NCBI GenBank assembly: GCA_016939365.1
Contig: JAFGHD010000025.1
Span: 1-56,019 of the forward strand
DNA: 56,019 bases
Origin: Bacteroidales bacterium
GTDB lineage: Bacteria > Bacteroidota > Bacteroidia > Bacteroidales > JAFGHD01
Reading direction: 5' to 3'
Within the stretch, counting starts at the first letter, position 1, and every line of letters begins with the position of its first letter. The notes below the pieces were generated by a model. That model worked only from the letters and a program-made list of their open reading frames with translations, was not told the origin of the DNA and searched no databases. The position numbers and the translations under genes were made by a program. Of the stretch, positions 8,409 to 25,932 are shown piece after piece.

Positions 8409-9374
8409 TTACGAATCGATCAGGCCCCTTCCGGATTTCTTGATTTGACCAACGGCTTTTAAATCAGCAATGAGCTTGTCCAGGATGCCGTTCACAAATA
8501 CCTTGCTCTTGGGAGTACTGTATATTTTGGATATTTCTATATATTCATTGAGGGATACCTTGATGGGAATGGACTGGAATTCAAGAAATTCTGCCAAAGC
8601 CATCTTCAGAATGATCATATCCATTGCAGCCACTCTCTCCAACTCCCAGTGTTCCAGCTTTACCCGGATCAACTCTTCGTATTCATGACTGTGGATAATG
8701 GACTTAAGGAACAAATTTACGAAAAACCGGTGGTCCTCTCCCTTACCGTTCTCCACATTATCTTTGAGGAGGGGGGGAAGGTGGTGGTCTTCATCCCAAT
8801 CCTCGCTGAATTCCTTAAACAGTTTAATCAGCAGCAGATTTGCCGTGAAAAAATCATCTGACCAATAAATGTGACGTTCTTCATAGAAAGAGTGAAGCGC
8901 CTCGGATTTCATCAGGTGTTTTCTGACCAGCAGGTTTATGAATTCCTTATCTTCCTGATACGATCCTTCAGGTGAATTCACATAGGCTTTATAATCGCTG
9001 CTCTCCCTGATCTGCTGGTATAGCTTGCCTATCAACGTCATTTCTCCTGTCCATGACACATTGAATTTGCCAAGCCCGTGGATATAATCCCTGTTGCATG
9101 CCAGCTGGGCGATAAAACGGTTATTGATGAATTTGGTATTGGGATGCAGGTCTTCCTCGGAAGGGATGAACTTTTTTTTCCCTTCTTCGATTCTTCTTTT
9201 TGCGAAATCAACGATCTCGGGGATCAGCGACAACTGGTAGAAAAAAAGTTCATGCAGCTTGGTAAGGGATCTCAGGAGTTCCTTTTCCGCCAGGTCCAAG
9301 CGGTCATTGCCTGAGATAAAAAAGCTGTATAATGCCTGTAATACCTTAACTCTGAGGTGCCTTCTGCTCAGCAT
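8409..9374 (-). CDS. nusB: Transcription antitermination factor NusB (long Bacteroidota form)
   Basis: NusB binds boxA RNA with S10 and supports antitermination of rRNA transcription. The N-terminus MLSRRHLRVKVLQALYSF is the classic NusB opening. The C-terminal ~110 residues carry the NusB core: ELERVAAMDMIILKMALAEF, IPIKVSLNEYIEISKIYSTPKSKVFVNGILDKL. At 321 aa it is more than twice the E. coli length because of a ~170-residue helical insertion between these parts, normal for the phylum. It is the first gene of its operon and has a consensus promoter ending 21 bp upstream of the ATG. Confidence 0.95.
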   Translation of the reverse strand: MLSRRHLRVKVLQALYSFFISGNDRLDLAEKELLRSLTKLHELFFYQLSLIPEIVDFAKRRIEEGKKKFIPSEEDLHPNTKFINNRFIAQLACNRDYIHGLGKFNVSWTGEMTLIGKLYQQIRESSDYKAYVNSPEGSYQEDKEFINLLVRKHLMKSEALHSFYEERHIYWSDDFFTANLLLIKLFKEFSEDWDEDHHLPPLLKDNVENGKGEDHRFFVNLFLKSIIHSHEYEELIRVKLEHWELERVAAMDMIILKMALAEFLEFQSIPIKVSLNEYIEISKIYSTPKSKVFVNGILDKLIADLKAVGQIKKSGRGLIDS

Positions 9375-9394
9375 CCTATTTCAAAGAATTTATG

Positions 9395-9422
9395 CAAATA
9401 TAGGGATTTTGGACAGATGCAA
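9395..9422 (-). promoter_or_regulatory. Promoter of the nusB operon
   Basis: The minus strand reads TATATTTG at 9402-9395 with TTG at 9422-9420 and a 17-nt spacer. The predicted leader is about 15 nt. Confidence 0.5.
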
Positions 9423-9499
9423 AAATGCCGGCAAATATTGCATTTGAGGGAAATTAATTATACTTTTAAATTCTCCAGATTTTAAACGATCAAGTCACC

Positions 9500-11659
9500 A
9501 TGAAAAAGTCAGTCTTTAACCTTACAGATGCGTTTCTGGTTTTGATGATTGTTTTTCAATCTTCAGGTCAGAATATTTCCGTTTCGGAAGACAGCAGCCA
9601 TGTGGCTGATCCATCAGCCATATTGGATGTTCACTCAACTTCCAAAGGATTGCTGATTCCGCGGATGACAGAATTGGAAAGGGATGCCATTCAGGTGCCG
9701 GCTACAGGCCTGCTGATTTTTCAGACGGATGGCATTCCCGGATTATATTTAAACGAGGGAGATGCGAATAATCCCTCATGGATCAGTCTGGTGAGTTATT
9801 CCGGGCAGGTCTGGCAAAGAGATACCCTGCGTCGGCATGTTTTTCTCCCTGATGCTTCTGACAGTGTAGGTGTGGGTATCCGGCATCCTGAGGAAAAGCT
9901 GGAGATCAACGGACATCTGGTCATTGACACATTGGATCCCTTCCTGCGTTTCAATCAGGATAGTTTTCCAGCCGGCAGGATACGGTATTATTTGCCTCCC
10001 GATAACGGTTATCTGCATTTTCAGTCATGGGACATGAATAATTTCGAAGCTACAGGCATCGTGTTACGATCACCTTTCCAGCGGGTCGGTATCGGTACCC
10101 TTGATCCTGCGACCAGGCTGGATGTGGCGGGTACGGTGAAAATGACCGGATTTCTGATGCCAGGCGGCGCCGGAGAAGGAAATGTGCTCACATCAGATCA
10201 GGACGGATACGGCACATGGACATCGCCACCCATCAAAGGATCAGGATCGGCAGAATATATACCCAAGTTCAACGAGCCAAGAAATCTGGTCAACTCCTCA
10301 CTCCGTGAGATCATTTACACGCAATCCCAGGATCCACAGATTCCCCCTGATTCTTCCGCTGTGCATTTATTCCTGTACAGGCCTGAAATCTGGTCATCTA
10401 CGCTGGGCCTTTCCAATGATTCTGCAGGTGCCGTCCCGGGTAGCGGGCTGGAGCTGGGTTTCGGTTTGAAATCAGGAATAAGGGATGCCTATCTGCTGAA
10501 TATGGCATGTGGAAACCTTCACCTGGGCACAGACAGCATTAACAGGATACGGATCGACACTGCGGCATACATCAGTTTTAAAGGCGATCTGGTACTTGAT
10601 TCGGCAGATGCATGCGTTATGTGGGTAGATACCTTTTTCATTGAACCGCCTCAGGAAAGAACCTTTGCCGAGGCAAGGCTGGTGAAGGAACTGGGAAATT
10701 ATCCTTATGAGACGGACCGGTACTTCCACCTTCATTCCTGGACCGAAAACTATCAGGAATTTTATGACACAGGAATAATCCTCAGGCCACCATTCAACTT
10801 TGTCGGCCTGGGTACGAAGTGGCCCGAAAAGAAACTGGAAATCGAAGGGAACATGATGCTGGACACGGTGAATGCTGCCATTTTTTTCGCAGACCGGAAT
10901 TTCCCTCAGGGATATCCTGACGACATCGCACGAATCGCCTACGAGAGAAATCCTCCAAATACCCCATTCAAAATACTTCATCTCCAGGCATGGGACGGTT
11001 TCAATATGGAGGAGCCCGGGCTGGTTGTCAAATCGGACAACGAATATACAGGTGTTGGATTGCTGAATCCACTAGCCAGACTGCATGTCTTTCAGGATGA
11101 TTTTGATGACGCCTTCAGGGTGGATGATGAGTATTCGGATGACACACCTTTTGTTATCGATAGGGAAGGCGACGTACATCTGGGAGGTGATGTTTACAGT
11201 GATCATGACCTGACTATTGATGCAGGGAACAGGAAAATCACGATCCTCAGCGGGAATTCCAAAATCATACTTGAGAATGGGAACATTACCATTGAATCGT
11301 CACACAACCTGAATATACATGCCGGAAATAATATTGTGGTGGATGCAGGAGGCAGTATTCAGTTCTCTGCAGATATGGATCTGGATCTCCAGGCCGGCAA
11401 TCAATGCCGGACCTCAGCAGGGATAAAGATAAAGCACAATGTCTCCAATTCATCTGTGCTCATAGATGCGGTAAAAGTGGCCATGCAGGGATCTCCATAT
11501 GTGCACCTGAATGGGCCTGGAAGGATGGTTTCGGGAATGAACCATCTGGTCAGTTCCCCTGCTGGGGGAGGATTAGGCCCCATTATACAGGGTAATCCTT
11601 TTGTACTTATGGGCCTTGATACAGAAGGGGACAAGGATCAGAATGATCCCGAAAGATAA
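9500..11659 (+). CDS. Exported fibre-like protein with gp5/VgrG-like octad beta-helix C-terminus
   Basis: This 719-aa protein has a signal-like N-terminus ending near SSGQ. Residues ~25-100 form a module common in Bacteroidota tail-fibre-like proteins (DPSAILDVHSTSKGLLIPRMT...GLLIFQTD...GLYLN). Next come GIGT/P repeats (VGIGTLDPATRLDVAG). Three copies of a ~80-95-residue unit (about 121-199, 367-438 and 439-530) share L-x-I-x-G...D-T/S...F...H-x-x-S/A-W...GI/LVL/V. From ~568 to ~672 the chain becomes regular eight-residue repeats (LNIHAGNN, IVVDAGGS, LDLQAGNQ), as in the triple-stranded beta-helix needles of phage gp5 and VgrG, followed by a strand pair VAMQGSPYVHLNG. No chaperone or T9SS domain is seen. 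It is probably a trimeric fibre or spike; the function is not known. Confidence 0.65.
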   Translation: MKKSVFNLTDAFLVLMIVFQSSGQNISVSEDSSHVADPSAILDVHSTSKGLLIPRMTELERDAIQVPATGLLIFQTDGIPGLYLNEGDANNPSWISLVSYSGQVWQRDTLRRHVFLPDASDSVGVGIRHPEEKLEINGHLVIDTLDPFLRFNQDSFPAGRIRYYLPPDNGYLHFQSWDMNNFEATGIVLRSPFQRVGIGTLDPATRLDVAGTVKMTGFLMPGGAGEGNVLTSDQDGYGTWTSPPIKGSGSAEYIPKFNEPRNLVNSSLREIIYTQSQDPQIPPDSSAVHLFLYRPEIWSSTLGLSNDSAGAVPGSGLELGFGLKSGIRDAYLLNMACGNLHLGTDSINRIRIDTAAYISFKGDLVLDSADACVMWVDTFFIEPPQERTFAEARLVKELGNYPYETDRYFHLHSWTENYQEFYDTGIILRPPFNFVGLGTKWPEKKLEIEGNMMLDTVNAAIFFADRNFPQGYPDDIARIAYERNPPNTPFKILHLQAWDGFNMEEPGLVVKSDNEYTGVGLLNPLARLHVFQDDFDDAFRVDDEYSDDTPFVIDREGDVHLGGDVYSDHDLTIDAGNRKITILSGNSKIILENGNITIESSHNLNIHAGNNIVVDAGGSIQFSADMDLDLQAGNQCRTSAGIKIKHNVSNSSVLIDAVKVAMQGSPYVHLNGPGRMVSGMNHLVSSPAGGGLGPIIQGNPFVLMGLDTEGDKDQNDPER

Positions 11660-11710
11660 TAATATAGATGCCTCAAATTATTCTAGTGCTGTCACCTCGA
11701 GAAACAGAAT

Positions 11711-12439
11711 TCACCCAGCGGGCAGGTACTCCCTGTTGATGCGGCTCATACTGCGGTAAAGGTTATGCCGTGCCAGCCTGTGACTTTTGAGCAGCTCATC
11801 GAGGACAGGCCGGATAGTGTCCTTTCTCACATTGCCCTCATAGGGACAGAGTAAGGGTGAATAAGGCAGCCCCAGGGTGTCGGCATACCTTTGCACCTCA
11901 TGTGCCGAAAGCAGTGCCAACGGTCTGATCAGTTCCAGTGTACCGCCGAACATGACCAGCCGGGGCGGCATGGTGCTGAACTCCCCGTGATAGACCATAT
12001 TGATCAGCAAGGTCTCCAGGATGTCGTCCATGTGGTGACCGAAAGCCGCTTTGTTGCAGCCCATGGACTTAGCCAGATTGAAGATCTCTTTTCTTCGCAC
12101 AAAGAAACAGCGGAAACAGGATGGTGAACGATCCGGAGCCTCTTCATCTGAAAGACATGCTTCGATCTGTACCAATGGAACATTGAGGCTTTCACAGAAA
12201 TCATCCAATCCGTGAGCCTGATGCCGGCGCAGCTCTTTTAATGCAACGTGCACCGCCGTGATCCGGAACGAGCCGGGAACCAGTCTCCGGTGATAGACGA
12301 GTGCTTCGAGCATCACCGCTGAATCCTTGCCGCCGGATAACGCTGCCATCACATGATCGCCGGGACTGATCATCCCGTAACGGTAAACGGCACGGGAAAC
12401 CTTTTTGCGGGTCTTGACAATGAAACCTTTGCTGGTCAA
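11711..12439 (-). CDS. ttcA: tRNA 2-thiocytidine biosynthesis protein TtcA family
   Basis: TtcA uses ATP and an Fe-S cluster to thiolate C32 of certain tRNAs. The 242-aa protein has the PP-loop SGGKDS at residues 35-40. A CxxC pair is at C108/C111 (SCFRC), with a third conserved Cys at C198 in LLCPYEGN, the usual cluster ligands, and GHHMDDILETLLINM is also typical. The frame has no ATG before the conserved RAVYRYG helix; the TTG at 12439 is the only plausible start after the in-frame stop, so I keep it. It is the last gene of a likely operon with guaA and the LysM gene, 51 bp after the latter. Confidence 0.88.
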   Translation of the reverse strand: MTSKGFIVKTRKKVSRAVYRYGMISPGDHVMAALSGGKDSAVMLEALVYHRRLVPGSFRITAVHVALKELRRHQAHGLDDFCESLNVPLVQIEACLSDEEAPDRSPSCFRCFFVRRKEIFNLAKSMGCNKAAFGHHMDDILETLLINMVYHGEFSTMPPRLVMFGGTLELIRPLALLSAHEVQRYADTLGLPYSPLLCPYEGNVRKDTIRPVLDELLKSHRLARHNLYRSMSRINREYLPAG

Positions 12440-12490
12440 ATCGCAAAAAATAAGTTCAACTTAAACATGCAGTGTGCAGGATTATTGCAT

Positions 12491-14821
12491 TCAGTCAGGA
12501 ATGTCATCGGCGTTAAATTCCTGAAAATCCTTCAGATGAATCAGGTTCCAGTAAGTATTTTCCAGTCCACCGCCGGTGATGCGCCTGAAATGATATTTTG
12601 TGGACAAGGGAGTGATATCAGGATCGTTCAGATTTTCCGGGAAACGGGATCCATAACGGTTCAGTGCATTGAGGAAAAACCACCCCGCATCGAAACCGTC
12701 AAAGGCATAACCTGATACAATGGGCTCTGTATGATAGCGGTTCCTGAAAGCAGTGATAAATTTAAGGGTTTGCCTGGAAGAGTAATCCAAATAATAGTCA
12801 CGGAGGAAATGAAAATTGAGATTCATCAGGTGATTCGCCTCGAGGTTGTCGAATCCCTGCCAGTCTGGCAATCCAAAAACGGTGATCTCATAACTTTTCC
12901 CTGTTTTGTTCAATTCCGAAAGTATCTGGTGAGCAAATACCCTTTCATCGGTAAGGACGATCACGATGTTGTCCCTGAGCCGTGAAAGGCTCACTTTCAG
13001 ACCCGGCAGGCTGTCCCGGGTATATATGATCTCTTTGACGGAATTGCTGAAATAGGTGCTGTCTTTCAGACTCCGCTGAATCTGTTGCTTGCGTATTAGG
13101 GTATTTTCGGTATATAATGATGTATGGTTGTTTAAAACTGCGAACATCCGGTTGATGCGGTCATTTCCGATATAGATCCCTGCGGGGATTTTCCTGTTGA
13201 TCTGGTTTTTGATATGGGAAGCCTCTTCAGCCCATTGGTAATTGTTGTGCCTGACAAGGAGAATATTGGAAGCTGGGTGATTGCGGCCTATGTGATCGGC
13301 AAGCATGGTGGTTCTGCTTTCCAGTGAGGGTTTCATTTTGATCACCTGTGGATTGTCTTGGATGATCTCTTCACGGAAAGAGAGGGGGTTGACTATCGGG
13401 ATTTCGTACAGGCGGGAGAATCCCGCCACTTTGGCGAAGGGCCCGCTGTAGAAGGGTCCGATGATCAGATCCATACGCTGCAGCTCGGATCTTCCCAGCA
13501 CCATTTCTGCTTTGCGTGTCTCCTGATCGATGTCATAGACAAAAAGGTTGATCTTCATTCCCATCCGGGCCAGCGAATCGGCAGCCAGCAGGAAGCCTTC
13601 ATAAAACTGGATAAAGCGGAAAGGTTTGATATCGTCCAGATCTTCCTCGCTGATCTGTTCCACCAAAATGCTGTCCTTTTCATCAAGAAAAAGGGGCACC
13701 ATCAGTGCAACGTTGAATATCACATCCCTGGTATCCGGGAACTCTGCAACACCTGTATCGCCGGTGCCGGGGGCGGGCTGCTCCTCGCCAGCGGTACTGT
13801 CAGGCGCGGTGGTTTCCCGGTTGACGGGGATCCGGATCACCTGCCCCCTGTCCACCTTCCTTGTGATATCCGGATTGAACGCCCTCAACTCCTCGGTTTC
13901 CAACTGGTATAGCTGTGCGATCTTCTCCACCTTCTGCTTTTCTTCTGAAGTATGTAGGATGAAATCACCAGTGGCCGGATCTGCCTTTACCCTGATCTGT
14001 TGTCCGGAATGGATGGCGTCGGCCAGACCGGGATTGATCGATTTCAGAGTGTCAACCGGCACACCGTAGCTCCGGGCAATCGAATATACCGTTTCCCCGT
14101 TGCTGACGGTATGCATGAGGGTTGTGGATTGCCCCTGTGATTCAGGGGGCTGATTCTCTTCCGGCGCTTCACCGGATCCGGGAATCAGAATATCCTGCCC
14201 GGCTTTCAGTCCTTCCCTGAGAAACGGGTTTGCATTGAGTATCTCCCCCGTGGTTACATTGTAAGTTCTGGCCAGGCCGTAGAGAGTCTCTCCGGATTTC
14301 ACGGTATGGGAAATAAATCCGGTTTTGTCCGGGGGGATCAGGGGCTCATCCAGACGCGGAATCCTGAGAACCTCACCAATATGGAGACTTTCACCCATCA
14401 CGGGATTCAATTGCCTGATACGGTCCATGGCAACGAGGTATCTTCGCGAAAGTCCGAACAGGGTTTCCCCGGGGCTGACGATATGATAATGAAATCTGGC
14501 CGTATCCAGTGCCTGACGTACCTCCGGAGCTGACGATTCAGATTCCCGGACTACCGGAATCTTGATCAGATCGCCCGGTTTGATGCCCTCCCTGGAGGAT
14601 GGATTATAAAGAAACAGGGTGTTTACGTTAACGCCATACGTTCTGGCAAGGGAATAGAGCGTTTCTCCTTCCTTGACAAAATGGATGTAATACTCCTGAC
14701 CATCCAGTATCTCAATAATCTCCGACTTTTCCGGTGCAACCTGTGTCAGTACGGGAAGGCAAAGCACCATGAATGAAGCCAGTAAAATGCCCCTCAGATG
14801 TCGGAAGTTTGTATGCTGCAT
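12491..14821 (-). CDS. LysM-repeat protein fused to a type-1 periplasmic-binding domain
   Basis: The product (776 aa) has a cleavable signal peptide (to about residue 26). It has four clear LysM repeats (GETLYSLARTYGV, GETLFGLSRRYLV, GETLYGLARTYNV, GETVYSIARSYGV) and a fifth degenerate one, together covering residues ~45-335. An acidic Pro/Glu linker follows. The C-terminal ~400 residues resemble the Leu/Ile/Val-binding fold of ABC substrate-binding proteins and receptor ectodomains (VALMVPLFL, MDLIIGPFYSGPFAKVAGFSRLYEIPIVNPLS, IVSGYAFDGFDAGWFFLNAL). LysM binds peptidoglycan glycan; a wall-tethered sensor or binding protein is a reasonable guess. It lies 21 bp behind guaA on the same strand. 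Confidence 0.85.
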   Translation of the reverse strand: MQHTNFRHLRGILLASFMVLCLPVLTQVAPEKSEIIEILDGQEYYIHFVKEGETLYSLARTYGVNVNTLFLYNPSSREGIKPGDLIKIPVVRESESSAPEVRQALDTARFHYHIVSPGETLFGLSRRYLVAMDRIRQLNPVMGESLHIGEVLRIPRLDEPLIPPDKTGFISHTVKSGETLYGLARTYNVTTGEILNANPFLREGLKAGQDILIPGSGEAPEENQPPESQGQSTTLMHTVSNGETVYSIARSYGVPVDTLKSINPGLADAIHSGQQIRVKADPATGDFILHTSEEKQKVEKIAQLYQLETEELRAFNPDITRKVDRGQVIRIPVNRETTAPDSTAGEEQPAPGTGDTGVAEFPDTRDVIFNVALMVPLFLDEKDSILVEQISEEDLDDIKPFRFIQFYEGFLLAADSLARMGMKINLFVYDIDQETRKAEMVLGRSELQRMDLIIGPFYSGPFAKVAGFSRLYEIPIVNPLSFREEIIQDNPQVIKMKPSLESRTTMLADHIGRNHPASNILLVRHNNYQWAEEASHIKNQINRKIPAGIYIGNDRINRMFAVLNNHTSLYTENTLIRKQQIQRSLKDSTYFSNSVKEIIYTRDSLPGLKVSLSRLRDNIVIVLTDERVFAHQILSELNKTGKSYEITVFGLPDWQGFDNLEANHLMNLNFHFLRDYYLDYSSRQTLKFITAFRNRYHTEPIVSGYAFDGFDAGWFFLNALNRYGSRFPENLNDPDITPLSTKYHFRRITGGGLENTYWNLIHLKDFQEFNADDIPD

Positions 14822-14842
14822 ATCAGGATGCCGGTTGTTTTA

Positions 14843-16372
14843 TTATTCCCATTCGATCGTTGCCGGGGGCTTGGAGCTGATGTCATACACCACCCTGTTG
14901 ACACCCTTGACCTGATTGATGATCTTGCTGGATATCCGGGCCAGGAAATCATAGGGAAGCTGTGACCAGTCTGCGGTCATCCCGTCCGTGGAATTCACCG
15001 CACGGAGTGCTACTACGTTCTCATATGTCCGTTCATCTCCCATAACACCGACGGTGTGGATGGGCAGCAGAATGCTCCCGGCCTGCCATACCTTGTCATA
15101 AAGGCCAGCCTCTTTCAATCCTTCAATATAGATGTGATCCACATCCTGAAGTATCCTCACCTTCTCTGCCGTTACTTCTCCCAGTATCCTGATGCCCAGG
15201 CCGGGGCCGGGGAATGGGTGCCTCCGGATGATGGCAGGCTCCATTTCCAGAAAAGCCCCTATTTTTCGTACCTCATCCTTAAACAACGTATTCAGGGGTT
15301 CCACTATTTTCAGTTTCATGAAATCCGGCAATCCACCTACGTTGTGATGGGACTTGATGGTGGAAGAAGGTCCCTTGACCGATTTCGATTCGATCACATC
15401 AGGATAGATGGTCCCCTGGGCGAGCCAGACAACGTCCCTGATCTGATGCGCCTCTTCGTCGAAAACCTCGATAAAAGTCCGTCCGATGGCCTTTCTTTTC
15501 TGTTCCGGTTCGCTGATCCCTTTCAACGAGCTGTAAAACCGATCCTTTGCATCCACGCCCTTTACGTTCAGCCCCATATGCTTGTAGGAATCCAGTACCG
15601 TTTCAAATTCATATTTCCTGAGCAGCCCGTTATCTACGAAGATGCAATGCAGGTTTTTGCCGATGGCGCGGTGGAGCAGTGCTGCCGTCACGGAAGAATC
15701 CACACCCCCGGAAAGGCCCAGCACCACCTTGTCATGGCCGAGCCTGTCAGACAACTCCCTGATGGTGGTCTCGACAAATGATGCCGGGGTCCAGCTCTGT
15801 GCACAGTGGCAGATATCCACCACGAAATTCCTGAGCAAAATGGTGCCCTCTTCCGTGTGATAGACTTCAGGGTGGAATTGGATACCAAAGGTATCCTGTT
15901 CTGCGATCTGGAATCCGGCCACCTTTACATCAGCCGTGCTTGCAATCGTCCTGAAATTTACCGGAAGCTCACGTATGGTATCCCCGTGCGACATCCATAC
16001 CTGACAACCCTGGGTCATGCCGGTCAAAAGGGGATTGGCCCGGTCTATGAAGTCCAGGTGAGCCCTGCCGTATTCACGGATCGCTGAAGGCATGACATCA
16101 CCTCCCATGCTCAGGGCAATATACTGTGCGCCATAACAGATGGAAAGAACCGGCACACGGCCCAGGATCCCGCTGAGGTCCGGAGCTGGTGATCCTGTAT
16201 CTCGAACCGAATAGGGACTTCCTGACAATATCACCCCTTTGATGAAGGGAGATATGCCGGGATAATTATCAAAAGGATGTATTTCACAGTAAACGTTCAG
16301 TTCCCTTACCCGCCGTGCGATCAGCTGGGTGTACTGCGAACCGAAATCCAGTATCAGGATGACCTCTTCCAT
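14843..16372 (-). CDS. guaA: GMP synthase (glutamine-hydrolysing)
   Basis: GuaA converts XMP to GMP using ATP and glutamine. The protein (509 aa) is full length. Its N-terminal class-I amidotransferase domain has nucleophile Cys79 (SICYGAQ) and His167/Glu169 (QFHPE). The ATP-pyrophosphatase domain has the PP-loop SGGVDSS at residues 221-227. The C-terminal dimerisation domain ends in the conserved phrase KPPATIEWE. All key residues are present. It opens a minus-strand operon with the LysM protein and ttcA. Its promoter sits so close to the ATG that the mRNA would be leaderless or nearly so. Confidence 0.97.
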
Positions 16373-16379
16373 AGGGACA

Positions 16380-16411
16380 CAAAATTAGGATCATCTGATG
16401 ACCGGTACAAA
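16380..16411 (-). promoter_or_regulatory. Consensus promoter of guaA, predicting a leaderless mRNA
   Basis: The minus strand reads TTTG (16411-16408), a 20-nt spacer and TAATTTTG (16387-16380), a perfect match to the TTTG/TAnnTTTG pattern. The -7 box ends 7 nt before the guaA ATG at 16372, so transcription should begin at or within a base or two of the start codon. Confidence 0.6.
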
Positions 16412-16534
16412 TCAAGATGTTAACATTTGACAAACACAGAAAAGCATTAGGGATCCGTGATCCTTTTTACCGGCTGGTAGGGTACACCCATCCTGCCGTA
16501 CCTATAAATGACATTCCAGATCATTGGTTTGCGG

Positions 16535-16566
16535 TTGAAATAATTGACTTTCAGCCGTTTTATTTG
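16535..16566 (+). promoter_or_regulatory. Possible promoter of the Hcp-like gene
   Basis: TTG at 16535-16537, a 21-nt spacer and TTTATTTG at 16559-16566 (one mismatch to TAnnTTTG). The predicted leader is about 25 nt. Confidence 0.35.
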
Positions 16567-16597
16567 TATTTTTATAGAATAACCAATACATTTCCTA

Positions 16598-17560
16598 ATG
16601 AAAAAGATAGCATTGCTCTTTCTTTGCGGCCTGGGACTTGTTTCGCTTCATTCCCAGAACATCGCCGTAACCGACGACAGCACCTATACGGCTGATCAAT
16701 CCGCCATGCTCGACATTAAGTCAAATAACAAAGGGATGCTGGTACCCCGGATGACCTTCAGCCAGCGGGAGGCTATTATATCTCCTGCCAAAGGGCTGCT
16801 GATATACCAGACAGATCAAACAGAAGGTTTCTATGTAAATCAGGGAACTCCTGCCGCTCCCAGCTGGACCGGATTGACTTCCGGGACGAACAACCTGTGG
16901 CGTCTTGATTCGATGGGCACAGCCACCATTCTGTCCGATCCCGATCAGAGGGTGGGGATCGGCACGTCAGACCCACAGGCCAGGCTATCTGCCAACGGGA
17001 TGGTGCAATCCGTATCAGGCGGATTCAAGTTCCCTGATGGCACAGTGCAGACCACCGCTTCGGAAAATGCCCGTGAAGAGAGCGGTGCCGCTGAAGGCAG
17101 ATGGTGGATCGCCATGGAATGCTCCGAATGCCCGGGCAGCTGGCAAATACAGGGATATGAGGGCTGCTCCCAGGTGTTCAAACTGGAATGGGGCCTCCAA
17201 TGGCCATTTGACGGAGGTACAGGCCAGATAACAGGAAGCAGGGAGCTTCAAGCCCTGACCGTCACCAAAAACATTGACAAAGCGACCGTTTGTTATATCC
17301 AGAAATGCGACCAGGGATCCAATATCCCAAGTATTAAATTTAAATTCATCTGGTTTGATCCACCTACCGGGAATATCCAGGAATACTATAAAATTGAATT
17401 GACGAACTGCAGGGTGGTCGATCTCCATCATGATATCGTATACATGGGGAATGAAAGGCTGGCGCATATGGATGTCATTTCCATCTTGTACGAGGAAATC
17501 CTGTGGCAATGGATCCCGGATCAGATCATACACCAGACCACCTGGATACCGCCTCCCTGA
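16598..17560 (+). CDS. Exported protein with fibre-like N-terminus and Hcp-like (type VI tube) C-terminal domain
   Basis: This 320-aa protein has a clear signal peptide (MKKIALLFLCGLGLVSLHSQ). Residues ~22-135 repeat the N-terminal module of the 9500-11659 protein: AMLDIKSNNKGMLVPRMT, GLLIYQTD, VGIGTSDPQARLSANG, then a FPDGTVQTTA turn common in tail-fibre stalks. From ~167 to ~315 the sequence follows the Hcp pattern: a GYEGCSQVFKLEWGL strand, GSRELQALTVTKNIDKAT, IPSIKFKFIW, EYYKIELTNCRVV and a closing MDVISILYEEILWQW. Hcp normally forms cytoplasmic hexameric tubes of type VI systems and has no signal peptide. Export plus fusion to a stalk points to a different role. No other T6SS gene is in the window. 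The Hcp call rests on remembered family patterns. Confidence 0.7.
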   Translation: MKKIALLFLCGLGLVSLHSQNIAVTDDSTYTADQSAMLDIKSNNKGMLVPRMTFSQREAIISPAKGLLIYQTDQTEGFYVNQGTPAAPSWTGLTSGTNNLWRLDSMGTATILSDPDQRVGIGTSDPQARLSANGMVQSVSGGFKFPDGTVQTTASENAREESGAAEGRWWIAMECSECPGSWQIQGYEGCSQVFKLEWGLQWPFDGGTGQITGSRELQALTVTKNIDKATVCYIQKCDQGSNIPSIKFKFIWFDPPTGNIQEYYKIELTNCRVVDLHHDIVYMGNERLAHMDVISILYEEILWQWIPDQIIHQTTWIPPP

Positions 17561-17679
17561 TCTGCTTCATTATCCTTAACGACAGGAAAATAATACCCTG
17601 ACAAGCGGTCACCTTCCCTAACGGTTATCGTCAGTCATGGCCTGTATGAAGCTGCTTTCAGGATTGCGCCGCAATGTGC

Positions 17680-17687
17680 TAATTTTG
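17680..17687 (+). promoter_or_regulatory. -7 element for the radical SAM gene
   Basis: TAATTTTG is a perfect TAnnTTTG match, but no TTG lies about 20 nt upstream. If used, transcription starts about 5 nt before the ATG at 17699 and downstream of, or at, the TTG at 17693. Confidence 0.4.
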
Positions 17688-17698
17688 CCTCCTTGAAC

Positions 17699-18655
17699 AT
17701 GCAGATCACAGACCTGAACCTGGATGAATTGCTGCTGCCCTTAGAAACAATGGCAGACTGCACCTGGTGCCCCCGGGAATGTCATGCCGACCGTTTCGGT
17801 GATCATTTAGGTTATTGCAACAGCGGTGCCGGCTTCAATATCTCCTCGATCTGCGTTCATCATGGGGAGGAGCCTGTGATCAGCGGCAACCGGGGCATCT
17901 GCAATATCTTTTTCTCTCATTGCAACATGCAGTGCATCTATTGCCAGAACTACCAGATCAGCCGGAATACACATTCCGAACAAGGTAGAATCATGACACT
18001 TGATGAGGTTCTTGCACAGTGTCTGAATATCCTGGATCAGGGTGCCGGGGCGGTGGGTTTCGTATCTCCCTCACATCATGTGCCTCATGTTATGGTAATC
18101 ATCAGGGCACTGAGGCTGCTTGGGAGGAATCCTGTATTCGTCTATAACACCAATGCCTATGATAAGGTGGAGACGATCCGTCTGCTGGATGGCTGGATCG
18201 ATGTGTATCTGCCCGATCTGAAATACATGATCCCGGGGCTGGCTGAAAGTCTTTCAGACACTCCCCATTATCCTGAAATTGCCGCTGCAGCCGTCAGGGA
18301 AATGTACCGTCAGAAAGGCTCCACCCTGATCACCAACCATGAAGGTTACGCCGCCAGTGGGCTGATCATCAGGCATCTGGTCCTGCCCGGCCAGATCGAA
18401 AACAGCCTGAATGTGCTCCGCTTCATCGCAGAAGAGGCCTCTGCGAAGGTAAATGTATCCCTGATGGCCCAGTATGGTCCCGTACGGGACACAGCGGATC
18501 ATCCCTTCCTGGGAAGGACATTGCTGCCGGCGGAATACAGTGCTGTACTGAATGAAATGGAACGCCTGGGGCTTTACCGGGGCTGGATACAGGAGCTGTC
18601 GAGCAGCATGGAGTACCGTCCTGATTTCATGCGTGCCGATCCTTTTGTACCATAA
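17699..18655 (+). CDS. Radical SAM protein, PflX (COG1313) type
   Basis: The 318-aa protein has the radical SAM cluster motif C75-x3-C79-x2-C82 (HCNMQCIYCQNYQIS). Before it come a second Cys set CTWCPREC and GYCNSG, typical of PflX and AmmeMemoRadiSam-type activases. The rest is a partial TIM barrel with GAGAVGFVSPSHHVPHVM, VYNTNAYD and VDVYLPDLKYM. It should bind a 4Fe-4S cluster and cleave SAM; the substrate is unknown and no glycyl-radical enzyme is nearby. The frame reaches a TTG at 17693, but the ATG at 17699 fits better with the -7 box at 17680-17687. The methyltransferase gene follows by 38 bp. Confidence 0.88.
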   Translation: MQITDLNLDELLLPLETMADCTWCPRECHADRFGDHLGYCNSGAGFNISSICVHHGEEPVISGNRGICNIFFSHCNMQCIYCQNYQISRNTHSEQGRIMTLDEVLAQCLNILDQGAGAVGFVSPSHHVPHVMVIIRALRLLGRNPVFVYNTNAYDKVETIRLLDGWIDVYLPDLKYMIPGLAESLSDTPHYPEIAAAAVREMYRQKGSTLITNHEGYAASGLIIRHLVLPGQIENSLNVLRFIAEEASAKVNVSLMAQYGPVRDTADHPFLGRTLLPAEYSAVLNEMERLGLYRGWIQELSSSMEYRPDFMRADPFVP

Positions 18656-18693
18656 CACTCCGGATACCCGGGGTAGGCCGATATATCAATGAT

Positions 18694-19479
18694 ATGCAGA
18701 AAAGACACACCGACCGGCAGAAATACTTCAACGAGCAGGAGCTGACCACCTCCCGCTATGTGGTTCCCTTCATTGCAGGCATTAAAAAGATAGAACCGGA
18801 TTGTTCCGTTCTGGAGATCGGCTGCGGTGAGGGAGGAAACATGAAACCCTTTCTGGATATGGGATGCAAGGTGACCGGTGTGGATCTGTCCGAAAGCAAG
18901 ATCAACAACGCTCGGTTGTTCTTCAGCAATCACCCGAACCGCGACAGGCTTACCCTTCTCTCTTCTGATATTTTTGATGTGTCATCTGATCTCGGCAGGT
19001 TCGATATCCTGATGATGCGGGATGTGCTGGAACATATTCATGACCAGGGCCGTTTCCTGCATTTTATCAAGGGATTGATGAAGGAGGATTCTGTCCTGTT
19101 TGCAGGTTTTCCGCCATGGCAGAATCCTTTCGGTGGGCATCAGCAGATCTGCCGGAACCGTTTTCTTTCAAAAACCCCATACCTGCACCTTCTTCCGGGT
19201 GTTCTCTATAAGAGGATTCTCAGGTGGGGCGGCGAGCCGGTGAATCGCATCGAAAACCTGATGGAGGTAAGGGAAACCCGGATATCCATCGAACGGTTCC
19301 TGAGGATCGTGCGGAAAGAGCAATTCCGGATTGCCGGAATGATCCATTATCTCATCAATCCAAACTACGAGATCAAATTCGGTCTGAGTCCCCTGAAGGT
19401 TCATGGCTGGTTAACTGCTCTTCCATGGCTGAGAAACTTTTATACCACCACATGTTATTACCTGATCATGCCCCGGTGA
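18694..19479 (+). CDS. Class I SAM-dependent methyltransferase
   Basis: This 261-aa protein has the Rossmann SAM-binding motif VLEIGCGEGG at residues ~39-48. An acidic motif II follows in CKVTGVDLSESKI, and then FDILMMRDVLEHIHD, the pattern of type-11/UbiE-like methyltransferases. The C-terminal ~100 residues are basic and aromatic (PWLRNFYTTTCYYLIMPR), as in enzymes acting on glycolipid or polysaccharide precursors, but no substrate can be named. It starts 38 bp after the radical SAM gene and lies 96 bp before gapN on the same strand. Confidence 0.85.
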   Translation: MQKRHTDRQKYFNEQELTTSRYVVPFIAGIKKIEPDCSVLEIGCGEGGNMKPFLDMGCKVTGVDLSESKINNARLFFSNHPNRDRLTLLSSDIFDVSSDLGRFDILMMRDVLEHIHDQGRFLHFIKGLMKEDSVLFAGFPPWQNPFGGHQQICRNRFLSKTPYLHLLPGVLYKRILRWGGEPVNRIENLMEVRETRISIERFLRIVRKEQFRIAGMIHYLINPNYEIKFGLSPLKVHGWLTALPWLRNFYTTTCYYLIMPR

Positions 19480-19575
19480 TGCACATCTGCCGGAATGCAA
19501 ACCGGCATGTAATCCCGGTAAATGACCCGGCAATGATGCATCTGTATATCCTGCAAAAAAATCAACAAAAGAAGG

Positions 19576-21213
19576 ATGAGCCATTCAGACAATTTGGGAT
19601 CAATGATCTCCGGTGTTTTCCCCGCATGGGAAGAAATACCCGCTGTTCACCGCCAGGAGAGGCCCGTCGGACAGCGCGAATACCTGGTGGACGGCGAGAT
19701 CCGTATCTGGGAAGGTAAAGTCCAGGAGGTACTCTCTCCGATATGGATCGGTGGCACCGGAGGATTTAGGCAACATGTCGTTGGGCATTACCCGCTTCTG
19801 ACACGGAAGGAGGTTGATGAAATCCTTGATTCTGCGCAACGTGCATACGGAAATGGTTTCGGTCAGTGGCCGACCATGACGGTGCAATCCCGCATAGAGC
19901 ATGTGGAGGATTTTCTCATGAGGATGACAGACAAACGCGATGAGGTGGTGAAGCTGCTGATGTGGGAGGTCGGGAAGACCCTTCAGGATTCGGAAAAGGA
20001 GTTTGACCGGACGGTGGGGTACATCCAGGACACCATCGGAGCTTTGAAGGAACTGGATATGAGGTCTTCCGGTATTGTGACTGACCAGGGCGTCATGGCC
20101 CAGATAAGGAGGGCACCGTTGGGAGTCGTACTTTGTATGGGGCCTTTCAATTATCCGCTGAATGAAACATTCACCACCCTCATTCCGGCATTGATCATGG
20201 GAAACGTAGTCATCTTCAAGCCGCCGAGGCTGGGTGTGCTGCTCCACAGGCCGCTTCTGGAAGCCTTCCGGGATGCATTCCCTCCAGGGGTGGTGAACAC
20301 TGTTTACGGTGACGGCCAGGAGGTGATCGCCCCGATGATGCAATCCGGTAAGATCGATGTGCTGGCCTTTATCGGAAGCAGCCGTGTGGCCGACATCCTC
20401 AAGCATCAGCACCCAAGCCCCCACAGGCTGAGAAGCGTGCTTGGGCTCGAAGCGAAAAATGCAGGCATCATACTCGAAGATGCTGACATGGATCTCGCGG
20501 TTGACGAGGTCTTGACTGGTGCCCTCTCATTCAACGGGCAACGATGCACCGCCTTGAAGATCATTTTCGTACACCGGAAAGTAGCCGAGGGGTTCATCGG
20601 ATCACTTTCGGGGAGAATATCAACCATTGCATGCGGAATGCCATGGGAAAAAGGGGTGATGATCACCCCGCTGCCCGAGCAGGGCAAACCGCGGTATTTG
20701 GGGGAACTGATCGATGATGCGGTTGTCCATGGGGCACGGGTGATCAATGAAGCAGGCGGAATCATAAACCGGTCGTTTTTCTTCCCGGCATTGCTCTATC
20801 CGGTAAATGACCGGATGCGGGTCTGGCATGAAGAGCAGTTCGGCCCTGTGATCCCCGTGGTGCCTTTTGATGATCTGGATACTCCGCTAAGGTACATCAG
20901 TGAGTCAGACTTCGGTCAGCAGGCAAGCATCTTCGGCAGGGATGCAGGACGTATCGCACAGCTCATCGATCCCCTGGTCAACCACCTGTGCCGCATCAAC
21001 CTGAACAGCCAATGCCAGCGTGGCCCCGATACGTTCCCGTTCACCGGACGTAAGAACTCAGCCGAGGGAACCCTTTCCGTCACAGATGCCCTGAGGGTAT
21101 TCTCTATACGGACGCTCGTTGCCGCCAAATACAACACGCAGAACAGAGAACTGGTAAACCGGATACTCCAGGAGCATCAGTCCGCCTTCCTGAGAACCGG
21201 ATATGTGCTCTGA
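19576..21213 (+). CDS. gapN: NADP-dependent glyceraldehyde-3-phosphate dehydrogenase (GapN-type ALDH)
   Basis: This 545-aa aldehyde dehydrogenase has catalytic Cys324 in FNGQRCTALK and general base Glu292 in GLEAKN. It has the cofactor-site phrase GPFNYPLNETFTTLIPALIMGNVVIFKPP and the C-terminal block CRINLNSQCQRGPDTFPFTGRKNS, a phrase I associate with the non-phosphorylating GapN clade. GapN oxidises glyceraldehyde 3-phosphate directly to 3-phosphoglycerate and makes NADPH. The first ATG has an AGAAGG immediately adjacent (no spacer), so the ATG at 19603 could be the real start. No phosphorylating gap gene is in the window. Confidence 0.88.
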   Translation: MSHSDNLGSMISGVFPAWEEIPAVHRQERPVGQREYLVDGEIRIWEGKVQEVLSPIWIGGTGGFRQHVVGHYPLLTRKEVDEILDSAQRAYGNGFGQWPTMTVQSRIEHVEDFLMRMTDKRDEVVKLLMWEVGKTLQDSEKEFDRTVGYIQDTIGALKELDMRSSGIVTDQGVMAQIRRAPLGVVLCMGPFNYPLNETFTTLIPALIMGNVVIFKPPRLGVLLHRPLLEAFRDAFPPGVVNTVYGDGQEVIAPMMQSGKIDVLAFIGSSRVADILKHQHPSPHRLRSVLGLEAKNAGIILEDADMDLAVDEVLTGALSFNGQRCTALKIIFVHRKVAEGFIGSLSGRISTIACGMPWEKGVMITPLPEQGKPRYLGELIDDAVVHGARVINEAGGIINRSFFFPALLYPVNDRMRVWHEEQFGPVIPVVPFDDLDTPLRYISESDFGQQASIFGRDAGRIAQLIDPLVNHLCRINLNSQCQRGPDTFPFTGRKNSAEGTLSVTDALRVFSIRTLVAAKYNTQNRELVNRILQEHQSAFLRTGYVL

Positions 21214-21277
21214 TCCCACATTTTGGATTTCACCTGATCGTGATGCAAAATAACAGAGTTACAGAAGGAATGTGGGA
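21214..21277. terminator. Inverted repeat between convergent genes
   Basis: TCCCACATT (21214-21222) and AATGTGGGA (21269-21277) are perfect 9-bp arms separated by 46 nt, beginning right after the gapN stop codon and ending 29 bp before the end of the convergent M23 gene. There is no T-run, so it may be a mRNA 3'-end structure shared by both transcripts. Confidence 0.35.
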
Positions 21278-21306
21278 CAGACAATATGGTGGTTGCAATC
21301 CCAGAA

Positions 21307-23529
21307 TCAGGGATGAATGACGGTCAGCTTGACCGGCTCGAAGAAATCCGGGCCTTTCAGAATGATGAAATACAATCCCCGCGGCCAGCCGCTCACATCG
21401 ATGTGAAAACCGGTTTCTTCATCTGGTACGCTGCCCCTGAAAAGGTTCTTCATCCCTGTATCAAATGCTTCCCAACTGAATCCGCAGTATGGCTTTCCGG
21501 CAGGCAGGCTGATTTCAACATTTCCGTCCGCAGGATTGGGAAAGATGCGGGCATTCCCTGCGGTCTCATTCCCCGGCAGGGATGAAATGCCATTGCTGAA
21601 GGTAACATCCATGCTGTCGGCATCCATATTGCCGTATTCATCCCATATCTCCACAAATATCCTGTAGATGCCGTCAGTATAGCTGGCTGTTGAAAAGGCA
21701 AGGTTTTTTTCATTCAGATCCAGGATGGTATCACCGTTGTTATTGGTCAGTATCTGGTAATAATTCCTGTCTTCGGACATCCATGGGGGAGAGGTCAGAA
21801 TCCCGCCCTTTTTGTAAAGCAATGGCGCGTATTCTTCGTAATGGTAAGAGTCATAAAAGCTGTAAGGGTGATTCAACACCTGGCCGAGCGTCCTGTGCAG
21901 GATGGTGTCTCCGTCTGACGGGCGTGTGATCCAGTAATATGTTTTGAATGCGGGCTGTTCCCATTCCGATCCGGTGAAATAGTCGCTGGCTTTGACGAAA
22001 ATATCGACATCCCCGTAAAGATCATCCGGGGCGAGGTACAGGTTGGACTCATTCTGGCAGAAGCCGAATTTGGAATAACTGAAGACCGGTTCGATCTGTG
22101 GAGGGATCAGGTCGGTGTTGGGAACCAGGGCAAGCAGCGGATTAAAGTTGATCCCCCATTCGTTGTCATCGAATGACCATACTGTGCCGATATCCCGTAT
22201 CTCCACAAAATGGATATGGCCCCAGTCCCATGTCCATTCAATGATATCTCCCAGGTAATCATGCAGATGCACATAGTCGGCCACATCAAACTGAATGGTG
22301 GATTCAATAAGATGGGCATAAAGCCAGCCGTCGGAATATCCTGACACCTGCTCGGGGCTGATGGCAGTGCGCCAGTAGGAAGCACCGCCAATGGTCAGGA
22401 CACATTTCACCCACCCTTCTTCCACGGCATACACCGGCTCCCCGATAGGGGTGATGATATCAAGCCCCTGATGCAGATAAGACCAGTCGGGGGAACCATC
22501 ACCCATGTGCTGTTCATAATAGTTCCAGACCGTATGGGTGGTATCAAAAGGGACGAAGGGCCAGGGGATTTGTCCGCTTTTCAGCCGCTTTCCTGTTTCC
22601 TCGCGGGCCCTTAGCATATCTGGAAGAAGACGTATCTCTCCCGCTCCTTCTGAAATCAGTTCCCCGCCATAATCATATGATCTCCAGAAACCCTGGGAGA
22701 TTCTGTCGTCACGGTAATGTATTCCTGCAACGTACCCATTCCTGACTTCCAGGACATCCCGGAATGAATGGTTTCCCTCCAGATGATCCTGAACCATGCA
22801 GGTTCCAAGTTCAGTATCGGCAATCCACAGATCATGCCTTGTGATCATTGCCAGATGTCTGCCGGTATTCGAAAAAGCCATTCCCCTGATGAAACCGGAA
22901 GGGAGTGCAGTCTCGGATATCTTCATGTTTTTCCGGAAGACGGTTACCGTACTTCCTGTGGATACAGCCAGCAGGCTACCATCATGTGAAAAAACCGCTC
23001 TGAAACCGCCAGAGGTTCTGTATTCCATGAGATTCTCGAGGTCAAGGACGTGAAGGCCTGAAATACCGCCCCACGCAAACGAATTGCCGTCCGGTGAAAA
23101 AAGAAACAGATCAGGGCTCTGTGCACTTCTTTCCGCATATCTCCCGCCATTTTCATCAAGAAAAACCAGCCTTGTCATATTCTGATGATGCATGGCCATG
23201 TTGAAAAACACCACCTTGCCGCTGTTTGACACCATAGCGTCCGCTCCGGGGGCTACAGGTAGAATATACTTCAACTGACCATCCCGAAATAGCTTGAAAT
23301 CATTGAGTAATCTATCTTCATCTGTCGGGAATGCAGGTGTGAAGGTGCATGTATAGAGGCCATTTTCCGATACGATCCTCTGATATACTCCACAGGATTC
23401 CGGGACAATCATTCCATTGATGGCTATCCGCAGGTGCTTTGGCAGAAACGGATTCTGCTGGGCGAAGAGGGATGCAGTGGCCATCGCCGAAGCAAGTAGG
23501 AATGCTCCCAGGTAATGGTGGGTTTTCAT
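21307..23529 (-). CDS. Secreted M23-like metallopeptidase-domain protein with T9SS type A sorting domain
   Basis: I start this at the internal ATG (23529), which begins a standard signal peptide (MKTHHYLGAFLLASAMATASLFAQ); the frame extends 31 codons further upstream with no signal character. Mature residues ~25-300 have WD/PQQ-like propeller strands (LFLFSPDGNSFAWGG, AVFSHDGSLLAVSTG, GMAFSNTGRHLAMIT). The middle contains an M23/LytM-like domain with HQGLD (HxxxD) and HIHF (HxH), with GEPVYAVEEGWVKCV and DGWLYAHL, so the zinc ligands look intact. The last ~80 residues (RIFPNPADGNVEISLP...GLYFIILKG...VKLTVIHP) are a type A T9SS sorting domain. It may cleave peptidoglycan or act on extracellular polymers. 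Confidence 0.82.
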   Translation of the reverse strand: MKTHHYLGAFLLASAMATASLFAQQNPFLPKHLRIAINGMIVPESCGVYQRIVSENGLYTCTFTPAFPTDEDRLLNDFKLFRDGQLKYILPVAPGADAMVSNSGKVVFFNMAMHHQNMTRLVFLDENGGRYAERSAQSPDLFLFSPDGNSFAWGGISGLHVLDLENLMEYRTSGGFRAVFSHDGSLLAVSTGSTVTVFRKNMKISETALPSGFIRGMAFSNTGRHLAMITRHDLWIADTELGTCMVQDHLEGNHSFRDVLEVRNGYVAGIHYRDDRISQGFWRSYDYGGELISEGAGEIRLLPDMLRAREETGKRLKSGQIPWPFVPFDTTHTVWNYYEQHMGDGSPDWSYLHQGLDIITPIGEPVYAVEEGWVKCVLTIGGASYWRTAISPEQVSGYSDGWLYAHLIESTIQFDVADYVHLHDYLGDIIEWTWDWGHIHFVEIRDIGTVWSFDDNEWGINFNPLLALVPNTDLIPPQIEPVFSYSKFGFCQNESNLYLAPDDLYGDVDIFVKASDYFTGSEWEQPAFKTYYWITRPSDGDTILHRTLGQVLNHPYSFYDSYHYEEYAPLLYKKGGILTSPPWMSEDRNYYQILTNNNGDTILDLNEKNLAFSTASYTDGIYRIFVEIWDEYGNMDADSMDVTFSNGISSLPGNETAGNARIFPNPADGNVEISLPAGKPYCGFSWEAFDTGMKNLFRGSVPDEETGFHIDVSGWPRGLYFIILKGPDFFEPVKLTVIHP

Positions 23530-23755
23530 GGCAATAAATTTGAGGATAAAATTTTTTGGTATGATCAATTTTTCAGGATGTCGTTTTACATTTGCATGAG
23601 GCAGCATGGAGCGTTTGCCCATATTCTGGGTTGCTAAATTACTGAATTTTCAGCCAGGCGGCTGTCAGACTCCATTCCGGGCAGATGCAATTGCTTGTCC
23701 AACAGCGTGATGCGCTCAACTGATGCACCTGGTGTGATTGACGGATTGAATATCC

Positions 23756-23771
23756 TTCCGGAGTGCCGGAA
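23756..23771 (+). promoter_or_regulatory. Perfect hairpin upstream of the histidine-kinase operon
   Basis: TTCCGG-AGTG-CCGGAA forms a perfect 6-bp stem with a 4-nt loop, 38 nt before the kinase ATG. It could be a leader hairpin or an operator. The rest of the 280-bp gap (23530-23809) shows no gene and no strong promoter match. Confidence 0.3.
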
Positions 23772-23809
23772 AGTCTGCCTGGAAAATGCCATTTTAAAGG
23801 ACCAGAACC

Positions 23810-25918: not shown

Positions 25919-25932
25919 ACCCACAATGCCTG

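What the first reader, a model, noticed from the sequence alone, without database searches (positions are those of the whole stretch)
16598..17560. Exported protein fusing a fibre-like N-terminus to an Hcp-like type VI tube domain
Seen: a clean signal peptide, a tail-fibre-like module, then from about residue 167 a run that follows the Hcp pattern (GYEG strand, LTVTKNIDKAT, IPSIKFKF, EYYKIELTN, a closing YEEILWQW). Known: Hcp tubes of type VI systems are cytoplasmic, leaderless and polymerise into a tube. Inference: here the Hcp fold may be displayed outside the cytoplasm on a trimeric stalk, with a new use such as adhesion, a decoy, or an extracellular tube cap. No other T6SS gene is near.
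Basis: partly seen in the sequence, partly recalled or inferred. Interest (0 to 1): 0.75.

Follow-up and report, generated by a model that had tools for sequence, protein, structure and literature searches.

The report
Exported fibre-like protein with Hcp head
A bacterium with no detectable type VI secretion machine makes an exported fibre-like protein whose tip is a genuine copy of that machine's tube-building domain, and related stalk-plus-Hcp proteins turn up in other bacteria and in archaea, so this building block seems to have been reused outside the cell.

Summary
Window 16598-17560 encodes a signal peptide, a Bacteroidota tail-fibre-type module and a true Hcp domain (PF05638 E 1.6e-18; AlphaFold pLDDT 92; Hcp1 4hkh Z 20.3, 1.7 A over 144 residues). 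The genome has three such fusions on three contigs and none of three contractile-machine markers tested. In a tree the three domains group with six leaderless Hcps, each encoded beside TssC: the domain probably came from a type VI tube protein. Exported Hcps are not unique: 8 of 43 Hcp-bearing genomes in a phylum draw of 395 have one, and a draw that includes Thaumarchaeota has many. Hcp also follows collagen-like stretches in one actinobacterial and several archaeal proteins. Best reading: a secreted or envelope fibre-like protein with Hcp as its head, for binding or assembly. Ring formation, trimeric stalk, surface location and ligand are inferred, not shown. New variant of a known kind.

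The parts
16598..17560 (+). whole gene, 320 aa: exported fibre-module / Hcp fusion
   Evidence: fusion repeated in two paralogues
16598..16657 (+). signal peptide, residues 1-20 (cleavage near HSQ/NIA, inferred)
   Evidence: sequence; heuristic score 2.71
16658..16888 (+). Bacteroidota / phage tail-fibre-type module, residues 21-97 (SAxLDxxSxxKGxLxPRMTxxxRxAI..PAxGLxIYQT)
   Evidence: 24 of 118 phylum genomes; 244 of 423 pattern-matching viral-contig stretches encode a relative; model pLDDT 84-97 in the blocks of residues 21-90, 71 in 91-100
16889..17059 (+). stalk-like stretch with VGIGTSDPQARLSANG and FKFPDGTVQTTA motifs, residues 98-154
   Evidence: motifs kept in the three own-genome fusions; model low-confidence here
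17099..17548 (+). Hcp-fold domain, residues 168-317 (Pfam core 17120-17512)
17204..17251 (+). extended loop region of the Hcp domain (PFDGGTGQITGSRELQ), counterpart of the ring-stacking loop
   Evidence: loop role from PMC4650826 (passages)
17120..17167 (+). span between Cys175 and Cys190, invariant in the three own-genome fusions (possible disulfide)

Best explanation
This is a Sec-exported, T6SS-independent fibre-like protein. After export the N-terminal tail-fibre-type module and the VGIGT/FPDGTVQTTA stretch form a base and stalk, probably trimeric, and the C-terminal Hcp domain, recruited from a T6SS tube protein, serves as the head in the place where sister proteins carry adhesin or fibre-tip domains (Lcl C-terminal domain, S74, Collar). 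The head most likely binds a partner (glycan, matrix or cell-surface ligand) or joins fibres together, working like a secreted or envelope adhesin. Shown: ORF, fusion, Hcp fold (predicted, high confidence), relation to T6SS Hcps, absence of three T6SS/contractile markers from the assembly. Inferred: export, trimeric stalk, location, oligomeric state of the head, binding function.
For: Hcp homology and fold. Three fusions in one genome. No TssC (PF05943), Bacteroidota TssC (PF17541) or gp25 (PF04965) in a 97.5%-complete assembly; ring in the control E. coli, and rings in 1 of 60 class genomes (G012), though in 0 of its 14 named controls. The N-module carries interchangeable C-terminal domains: of 36 module proteins, 3 Hcp, 3 S74, 2 Lcl_C (2 also match NCBIfam 'collagen-like adhesin Lcl'), 1 Collar. 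The same swap elsewhere: Hcp behind a collagen-like stretch in an actinobacterial protein (Collagen 1.4e-7, over cut-off) and a thaumarchaeal one (0.0055, under cut-off). 14 of 15 genomes with an exported Hcp lack PF05943. The window protein and its C175 and C105 paralogues have lost 14, 21 and 17 of 31 positions conserved in 32 other Hcps, which fits release from tube and sheath contacts.
Against: No anchor or outer-membrane export signal was found: no T9SS sorting domain (the test is weak, since a plausible T9SS protein in the window scored only 11.7 against 23), so the protein may stay in the periplasm. Loss of conserved residues is not a general mark of export: the exported Hcps L117, L119, L124 and L143 keep 31, 30, 30 and 28 of the 31 positions, L139 24 and L145 22. 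The N-module model is moderate (pLDDT 71.4, pTM 0.46) and its structural matches are weak (best Z 4.1, no Foldseek E below 1). The fusion with this module was seen only in its own genome. The second genome of its genus and family has no Hcp match, though it is 92% complete with 6% contamination. Exported Hcp domains are not richer in cysteine than leaderless ones (mean 1.1 of 38 against 1.4 of 93). No ligand or binding residue is known.
Confidence: 0.5

Rival explanations
1. The Hcp domain is a structural ring or cap: it oligomerises (hexamer or stacked rings) to lock together, align or cap the fibres, or to build an extracellular tube, and binds no ligand of its own. It would take the assembly role that S74 is thought to have in sister proteins (recalled).
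For: Hcp domains form hexameric rings that can stack (PMC4650826 passages); the extended loop with its Gly and G.R is kept in the window protein and the C105 paralogue; S74 occurs in 3 of 36 module proteins.
Against: The C175 paralogue has lost most of the loop; the three own copies depart from the family at 14, 21 and 17 of 31 conserved positions; a trimeric stalk and a six-fold ring do not match one to one.
Confidence: 0.28
2. Envelope decoy or defence: the exported Hcp domain meets and blocks incoming Hcp tubes or their effectors from T6SS-armed neighbours.
For: The domain groups with T6SS Hcps, and Hcp rings bind effectors (PMC8262886, passages).
Against: No immunity or defence gene noticed among the ORFs of window 9000-26000 (by eye; not scanned against PADLOC); the neighbours of the two paralogues, by eye, are other genes; exported Hcps also occur in archaea and Actinomycetota, where T6SS attack is not a known pressure (recalled).
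Confidence: 0.06
3. Hidden T6SS or extracellular contractile machine: the gene is a divergent tube subunit of a machine missed here.
For: PF05638 membership; the assembly is in 197 contigs and 97.5% complete.
Against: Signal peptide and long fibre-type N-terminus; three marker families absent; no machine genes noticed nearby.
Confidence: 0.04
4. Relic: a T6SS Hcp captured by fusion and exported without a selected function.
For: Narrow distribution of this fusion and loss of many conserved residues.
Against: Three diverged copies with open frames, a shared cysteine pair and shared lineage-specific replacements point to selection.
Confidence: 0.08

Closest known systems
T6SS tube protein Hcp/TssD (PF05638, TIGR03344)
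   Same: Sequence family, beta-barrel fold, extended-loop region; nearest tree neighbours are Hcps encoded beside TssC
   Different: Signal peptide, long N-terminal fibre-type region, no T6SS marker of the three tested in the assembly, many conserved residues replaced
Bacteroidota 'tail fiber domain-containing' exported proteins with S74 or Collar C-termini
   Same: Signal peptide, N-module, VGIGT-like motifs
   Different: C-terminal domain is Hcp instead of S74 or Collar
Collagen-like adhesin Lcl (PF07603 Lcl_C, NF046116)
   Same: Plan of N-terminus, stalk and C-terminal head; Lcl_C is on the N-module in 2 of 36 proteins, and Hcp is on collagen-like stretches elsewhere
   Different: The window protein has no match to collagen repeats or Lcl_C
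Hcp genes with PEP-CTERM, removed from an Hcp survey (PMC8262886, passages read)
   Same: Hcp domain with a sorting signal
   Different: No PEP-CTERM match here; N-terminal fibre module instead
Specialised Hcps with C-terminal extensions (PMC8262886, passages read)
   Same: Multidomain Hcp
   Different: Here the extra region is N-terminal and exported; only 15 residues follow the Pfam match

Membership tests
T6SS Hcp/TssD | PF05638 match over the curated cut-off | tested here: met
   67.6 bits against 23.5
T6SS Hcp/TssD | NCBIfam TIGR03344 cut-off | tested here: inconclusive
   58.0 against 58.9 for the whole protein, 60.6 for the domain alone
T6SS Hcp/TssD | Hcp beta-barrel fold | tested here: met
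   pLDDT 92.3; 4hkh_A Z 20.3, 1.7 A, 144 aligned
T6SS Hcp/TssD | Leaderless cytoplasmic protein | tested here: not met
   Signal-peptide-like N-terminus (heuristic, not SignalP)
T6SS Hcp/TssD | Encoded with, or in a genome with, T6SS sheath and baseplate genes | tested here: not met
   PF05943, PF17541 and PF04965 absent from the 97.5%-complete assembly
T6SS Hcp/TssD | Hexameric ring stacking into a tube | not testable with these tools
   Monomer prediction only; stacking loop kept in 2 of 3 copies
Specialised Hcp with C-terminal effector | C-terminal extension over 60 aa after the Hcp domain (criterion of PMC8262886) | tested here: not met
   Hcp match ends at 305 of 320
Bacteroidota tail-fibre-type exported protein | N-module with signal peptide | tested here: met
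Bacteroidota tail-fibre-type exported protein | Homotrimeric fibre | not testable with these tools
   Only indirect: partner domains and weak matches to phage receptor-binding proteins
Collagen-like adhesin Lcl | Collagen repeats and Lcl_C domain | tested here: not met
   No such match in the window protein
T9SS substrate | C-terminal sorting domain | tested here: inconclusive
   None found, but a plausible T9SS protein in the window scored below cut-off too
Extracellular contractile injection system tube | gp25-type baseplate gene in the genome | tested here: not met
   PF04965 absent from the assembly

The most novel reading that the evidence does not exclude
The Hcp domain is a general extracellular head module that has left the T6SS repeatedly: bacteria and archaea without T6SS display it on fibre-module, collagen-like or coiled-coil-like stalks, or fused to Ig-like repeats, where it forms rings or head clusters that bind or bridge cells. 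Exported Hcps would then be a separate functional class of PF05638, with this protein as a stalked member.
Probability: 0.35. Interest if true: 0.8.

Novelty: new variant of a known kind. Interest (0 to 1): 0.58.

Why it matters
Hcp annotations are commonly read as evidence of type VI secretion. Exported, stalked Hcp domains in genomes where no machine was found show that this reading can be wrong and give a test case for how a secretion-tube subunit can be turned into an extracellular head. The archaeal and actinobacterial examples make the question broad and directly testable with purified proteins.

Tried and rejected
Chance similarity or frame artefact: rejected, since the fusion recurs on three contigs and the fold match is strong. 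Hidden T6SS: not found with three markers. Phage or plasmid origin: tblastn found no record where one place covers 80% of the query; 78 plasmid records matched in part (20 listed; the best covers 79% at 25% identity across OmpA-family and Hcp genes of Caballeronia) and 2 phage records. The Hcp alignments found no relative in viral contigs, although the N-module is common there.

Named genomes with the same fusion: the first genome-contig scan gave nothing; the second gave 53 loci, and I saw the N-module before Hcp in none. Disulfide enrichment as a mark of export: not supported. Loss of conserved residues as a general mark of export: not supported. Fold of the N-module: no firm match; 11 of the first 13 rows are hyaluronidase, tailspike, Mtd or capsule-lyase chains (that all of these are phage proteins and trimers is recalled), but Z is only 3.2-4.1 and no Foldseek E is below 1. 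One origin of the exported type: the tree needs 13 label changes, at least 5 forced by starred branches, with weak deep branches and an unsettled bootstrap. A mixed full-length alignment (A4) was dropped because MAFFT misplaced the first part of the Hcp rows. Papers: searches (and 107 for Lcl); passages read, one abstract and outline; in these listings and passages I saw no account of stalked or archaeal exported Hcps.

Full report
What is there. The gene at 16598-17560 (+) encodes 320 residues. Upstream lies guaA on the other strand and downstream a radical-SAM gene on the same strand (names from reading the translations, not searched), so it is not in a secretion cluster. Residues 1-20 look like a Sec signal peptide. 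Residues ~21-97 are a module found in 24 of 118 genomes drawn from the phylum. A plasmid-borne homologue in Aureispira is annotated 'tail fiber domain-containing protein'. VGIGTSDPQARLSANG and FKFPDGTVQTTA follow. From residue 168 on the protein is an Hcp domain.

The Hcp call is firm. PF05638 scores 67.6 bits against a cut-off of 23.5. TIGR03344 scores 58.0 against 58.9 for the whole protein and 60.6 for the domain alone. The best solved relative by sequence is 4hkh_A (E 7.4e-15). AlphaFold2 on residues 163-320, with a 33-row alignment (the domain plus 32 rows from 32 of the 53 loci; near-copies and five fragmentary or doubtful loci were left out), gave mean pLDDT 92.3 and pTM 0.85. Foldseek's first hit is the Hcp1 structure 4hkh_A (E 2.0e-13), and VIA-align gives Z 20.3 with 1.7 A over 144 residues. 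Tail-tube proteins of pyocins, phages and extracellular systems follow at Z 8-10.

Three copies, no machine found. The own genome (3.67 Mb, 197 contigs, 97.5% complete) has three PF05638 matches, all in N-module fusions with a signal-peptide-like start: the window gene, a 322-aa protein on C175 and a 545-aa protein on C105. Their neighbours differ (by eye). TssC (PF05943), the Bacteroidota TssC (PF17541) and gp25 (PF04965) are absent. PF05943 and PF04965 ring in the control E. coli; PF17541 rings in 1 of 60 class genomes and in 0 of the 14 named controls. The only other genome held for its family has no match to the Hcp domain, but is 92% complete with 6% contamination.

Where the Hcp domain came from. 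The tree has 97 rows: three own domains and 94 others chosen from 132 Hcp ORFs, after 13 named rows (fragments, repeats, the window's own copy) and near-copies over 75% identity were dropped; 39 rows were labelled exported, nine of the labels by eye because the heuristic misses non-ATG or lysine-poor starts. The three own domains form one group (100/99) inside a 9-row set (95/99) with six leaderless Hcps of the same phylum. Those six lie beside TssC genes: I scanned ten neighbours, at least one for each locus, and each locus gave a TssC; one locus also gave TssB, gp25 and TssF, and a second gave TssF. So the domain was probably taken from a T6SS Hcp. The bootstrap had not settled, and the tool flags the window row for odd composition and the C175 row as long, so this is good but not final evidence.

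Since then the window protein and its C175 and C105 paralogues have lost 14, 21 and 17 of 31 positions conserved in 32 other Hcps, and share replacements such as His to Trp, Pro to Val and Leu to Tyr. They share two cysteines, Cys175 and Cys190 of the window protein. This loss is particular to the trio: the exported Hcps L117, L119, L124 and L143 keep 28 to 31 of the positions, L139 24 and L145 22. The extended loop that stacks rings in another Hcp (PMC4650826, passages) is kept in the window protein and C105 and mostly lost in C175.

Exported Hcps are a wider class. PF05638 is found in 43 of 395 phylum genomes, 49 matches. Reading the match contexts, 10 of the 49 matches, in 8 of the 43 genomes including the own one, have signal-peptide-like N-termini; one match (L065) is a fragment without its N-terminus. 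Only the own genome has the fibre-module fusion. A class draw of 395 genomes gave 5 with matches to the own-type profile, none a new fusion. A scan of the GTDB set gave 53 loci, mostly leaderless Hcps, but with exported ones in Heimdallarchaeota, Planctomycetota, Peregrinibacteria and Bacteroidota. In the phylum that holds the Thaumarchaeota locus, 12 of 398 genomes have 27 matches; by eye 25 of the 27 begin with a signal-peptide- or signal-anchor-like stretch and the other two are fragments in one genome. The actinobacterial draw gave 8 of 396 genomes with 12 matches; of the 11 I could read, one, the collagen fusion, looks exported. Of 15 genomes with an exported Hcp tested for PF05943, 14 lack it (G212 has it, with separate leaderless Hcps); the sixteenth genome of that call was a T6SS-bearing comparison and rang. 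Of these, only the own genome was tested for PF17541, and several are incomplete MAGs.

Stalk plus Hcp, more than once. In the Frankiaceae MAG protein (L139) a signal-peptide-like start (by eye; the heuristic gave it 0.04) and 20 Gly-X-X triplets precede Hcp (Collagen 1.4e-7, over cut-off). In the Thaumarchaeota protein (L124) a signal peptide, another region and a run of 9 triplets precede Hcp (Collagen 0.0055, under cut-off); L177 from another archaeal genome is its close relative. Neighbouring genes of L124 look archaeal (plastocyanin-like, succinyl-CoA synthetase; recognised by eye). One archaeal protein (L178) has a coiled-coil-like stretch before Hcp, and others continue after Hcp into Ig-like repeats (by eye).

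What sits in the head position. Among 36 N-module proteins (35 found through plus the C175 paralogue), Pfam finds Hcp in 3, S74 in 3, Lcl_C in 2, DUF5907 in 2 and single cases of Collar, beta-helix, glycine-rich and YadA-head domains; several proteins were cut by the ends of the fetched stretches, so these are lower counts. NCBIfam 'collagen-like adhesin Lcl' matches 2 of the 36. The Lcl C-terminal domain is a trimer that binds glycosaminoglycans (PMC11162425, abstract). So fibre module and collagen stalk each carry more than one head, and Hcp appears on both. This is the main reason for an adhesin-like reading. It is an argument from company, not a functional result.

Mechanism and its gaps. 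I propose: Sec export; a probably trimeric N-module and stalk; an Hcp head that binds a partner or joins fibres. A three-fold stalk could feed a six-fold ring as a dimer of trimers, which would link two fibres, but nothing here tests it. No outer-membrane sorting signal was found, so the protein could be periplasmic. The N-module model is only moderately confident (pLDDT 71.4) and its matches to phage receptor-binding proteins are weak.

Prior knowledge. A large Hcp survey states in its methods that Hcp genes with the PEP-CTERM sorting signal were removed (PMC8262886, passages), so Hcps with a sorting signal were met before and set aside. My searches (listings, and passages of six papers) showed no account of stalked or archaeal exported Hcps; the library lacks most subscription journals and holds no bioRxiv preprints. 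Hence 'new variant of a known kind'.

Noticed in passing
window 9500-11659 (+): A second N-module protein (719 aa) ends in a VgrG/DUF2345-like beta-helix stretch with weak matches to T6SS spike and baseplate models: fibre modules with tube-like and spike-like parts in one genome.
   Followed up: partly
L174 with L191, L185 with L192, L187 with L193, L181 pair: In the phylum that holds the Thaumarchaeota locus, signal-peptide Hcp genes sit next to a second exported Hcp gene, in some cases one with long Ig-like repeats (by eye).
   Followed up: partly
L204, L205, L209, L220 (IMG/VR contigs): The same module that is N-terminal in the exported bacterial proteins sits at the very C-terminus of several phage appendage proteins.
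   Followed up: partly
L066 2914-3462 (-): An exported 182-aa Hcp lies directly beside a second exported protein gene that ends in a T9SS-like tail (by eye).
   Followed up: no
G944, four contigs (loci L164, L167, L169, L170): One genome of the actinobacterial draw has four PF05638 matches, with no signal peptide seen in the three that I could read.
   Followed up: no
L207 2956-3336 (+): A viral-contig protein has the N-module followed by collagen-like repeats (by eye).
   Followed up: no
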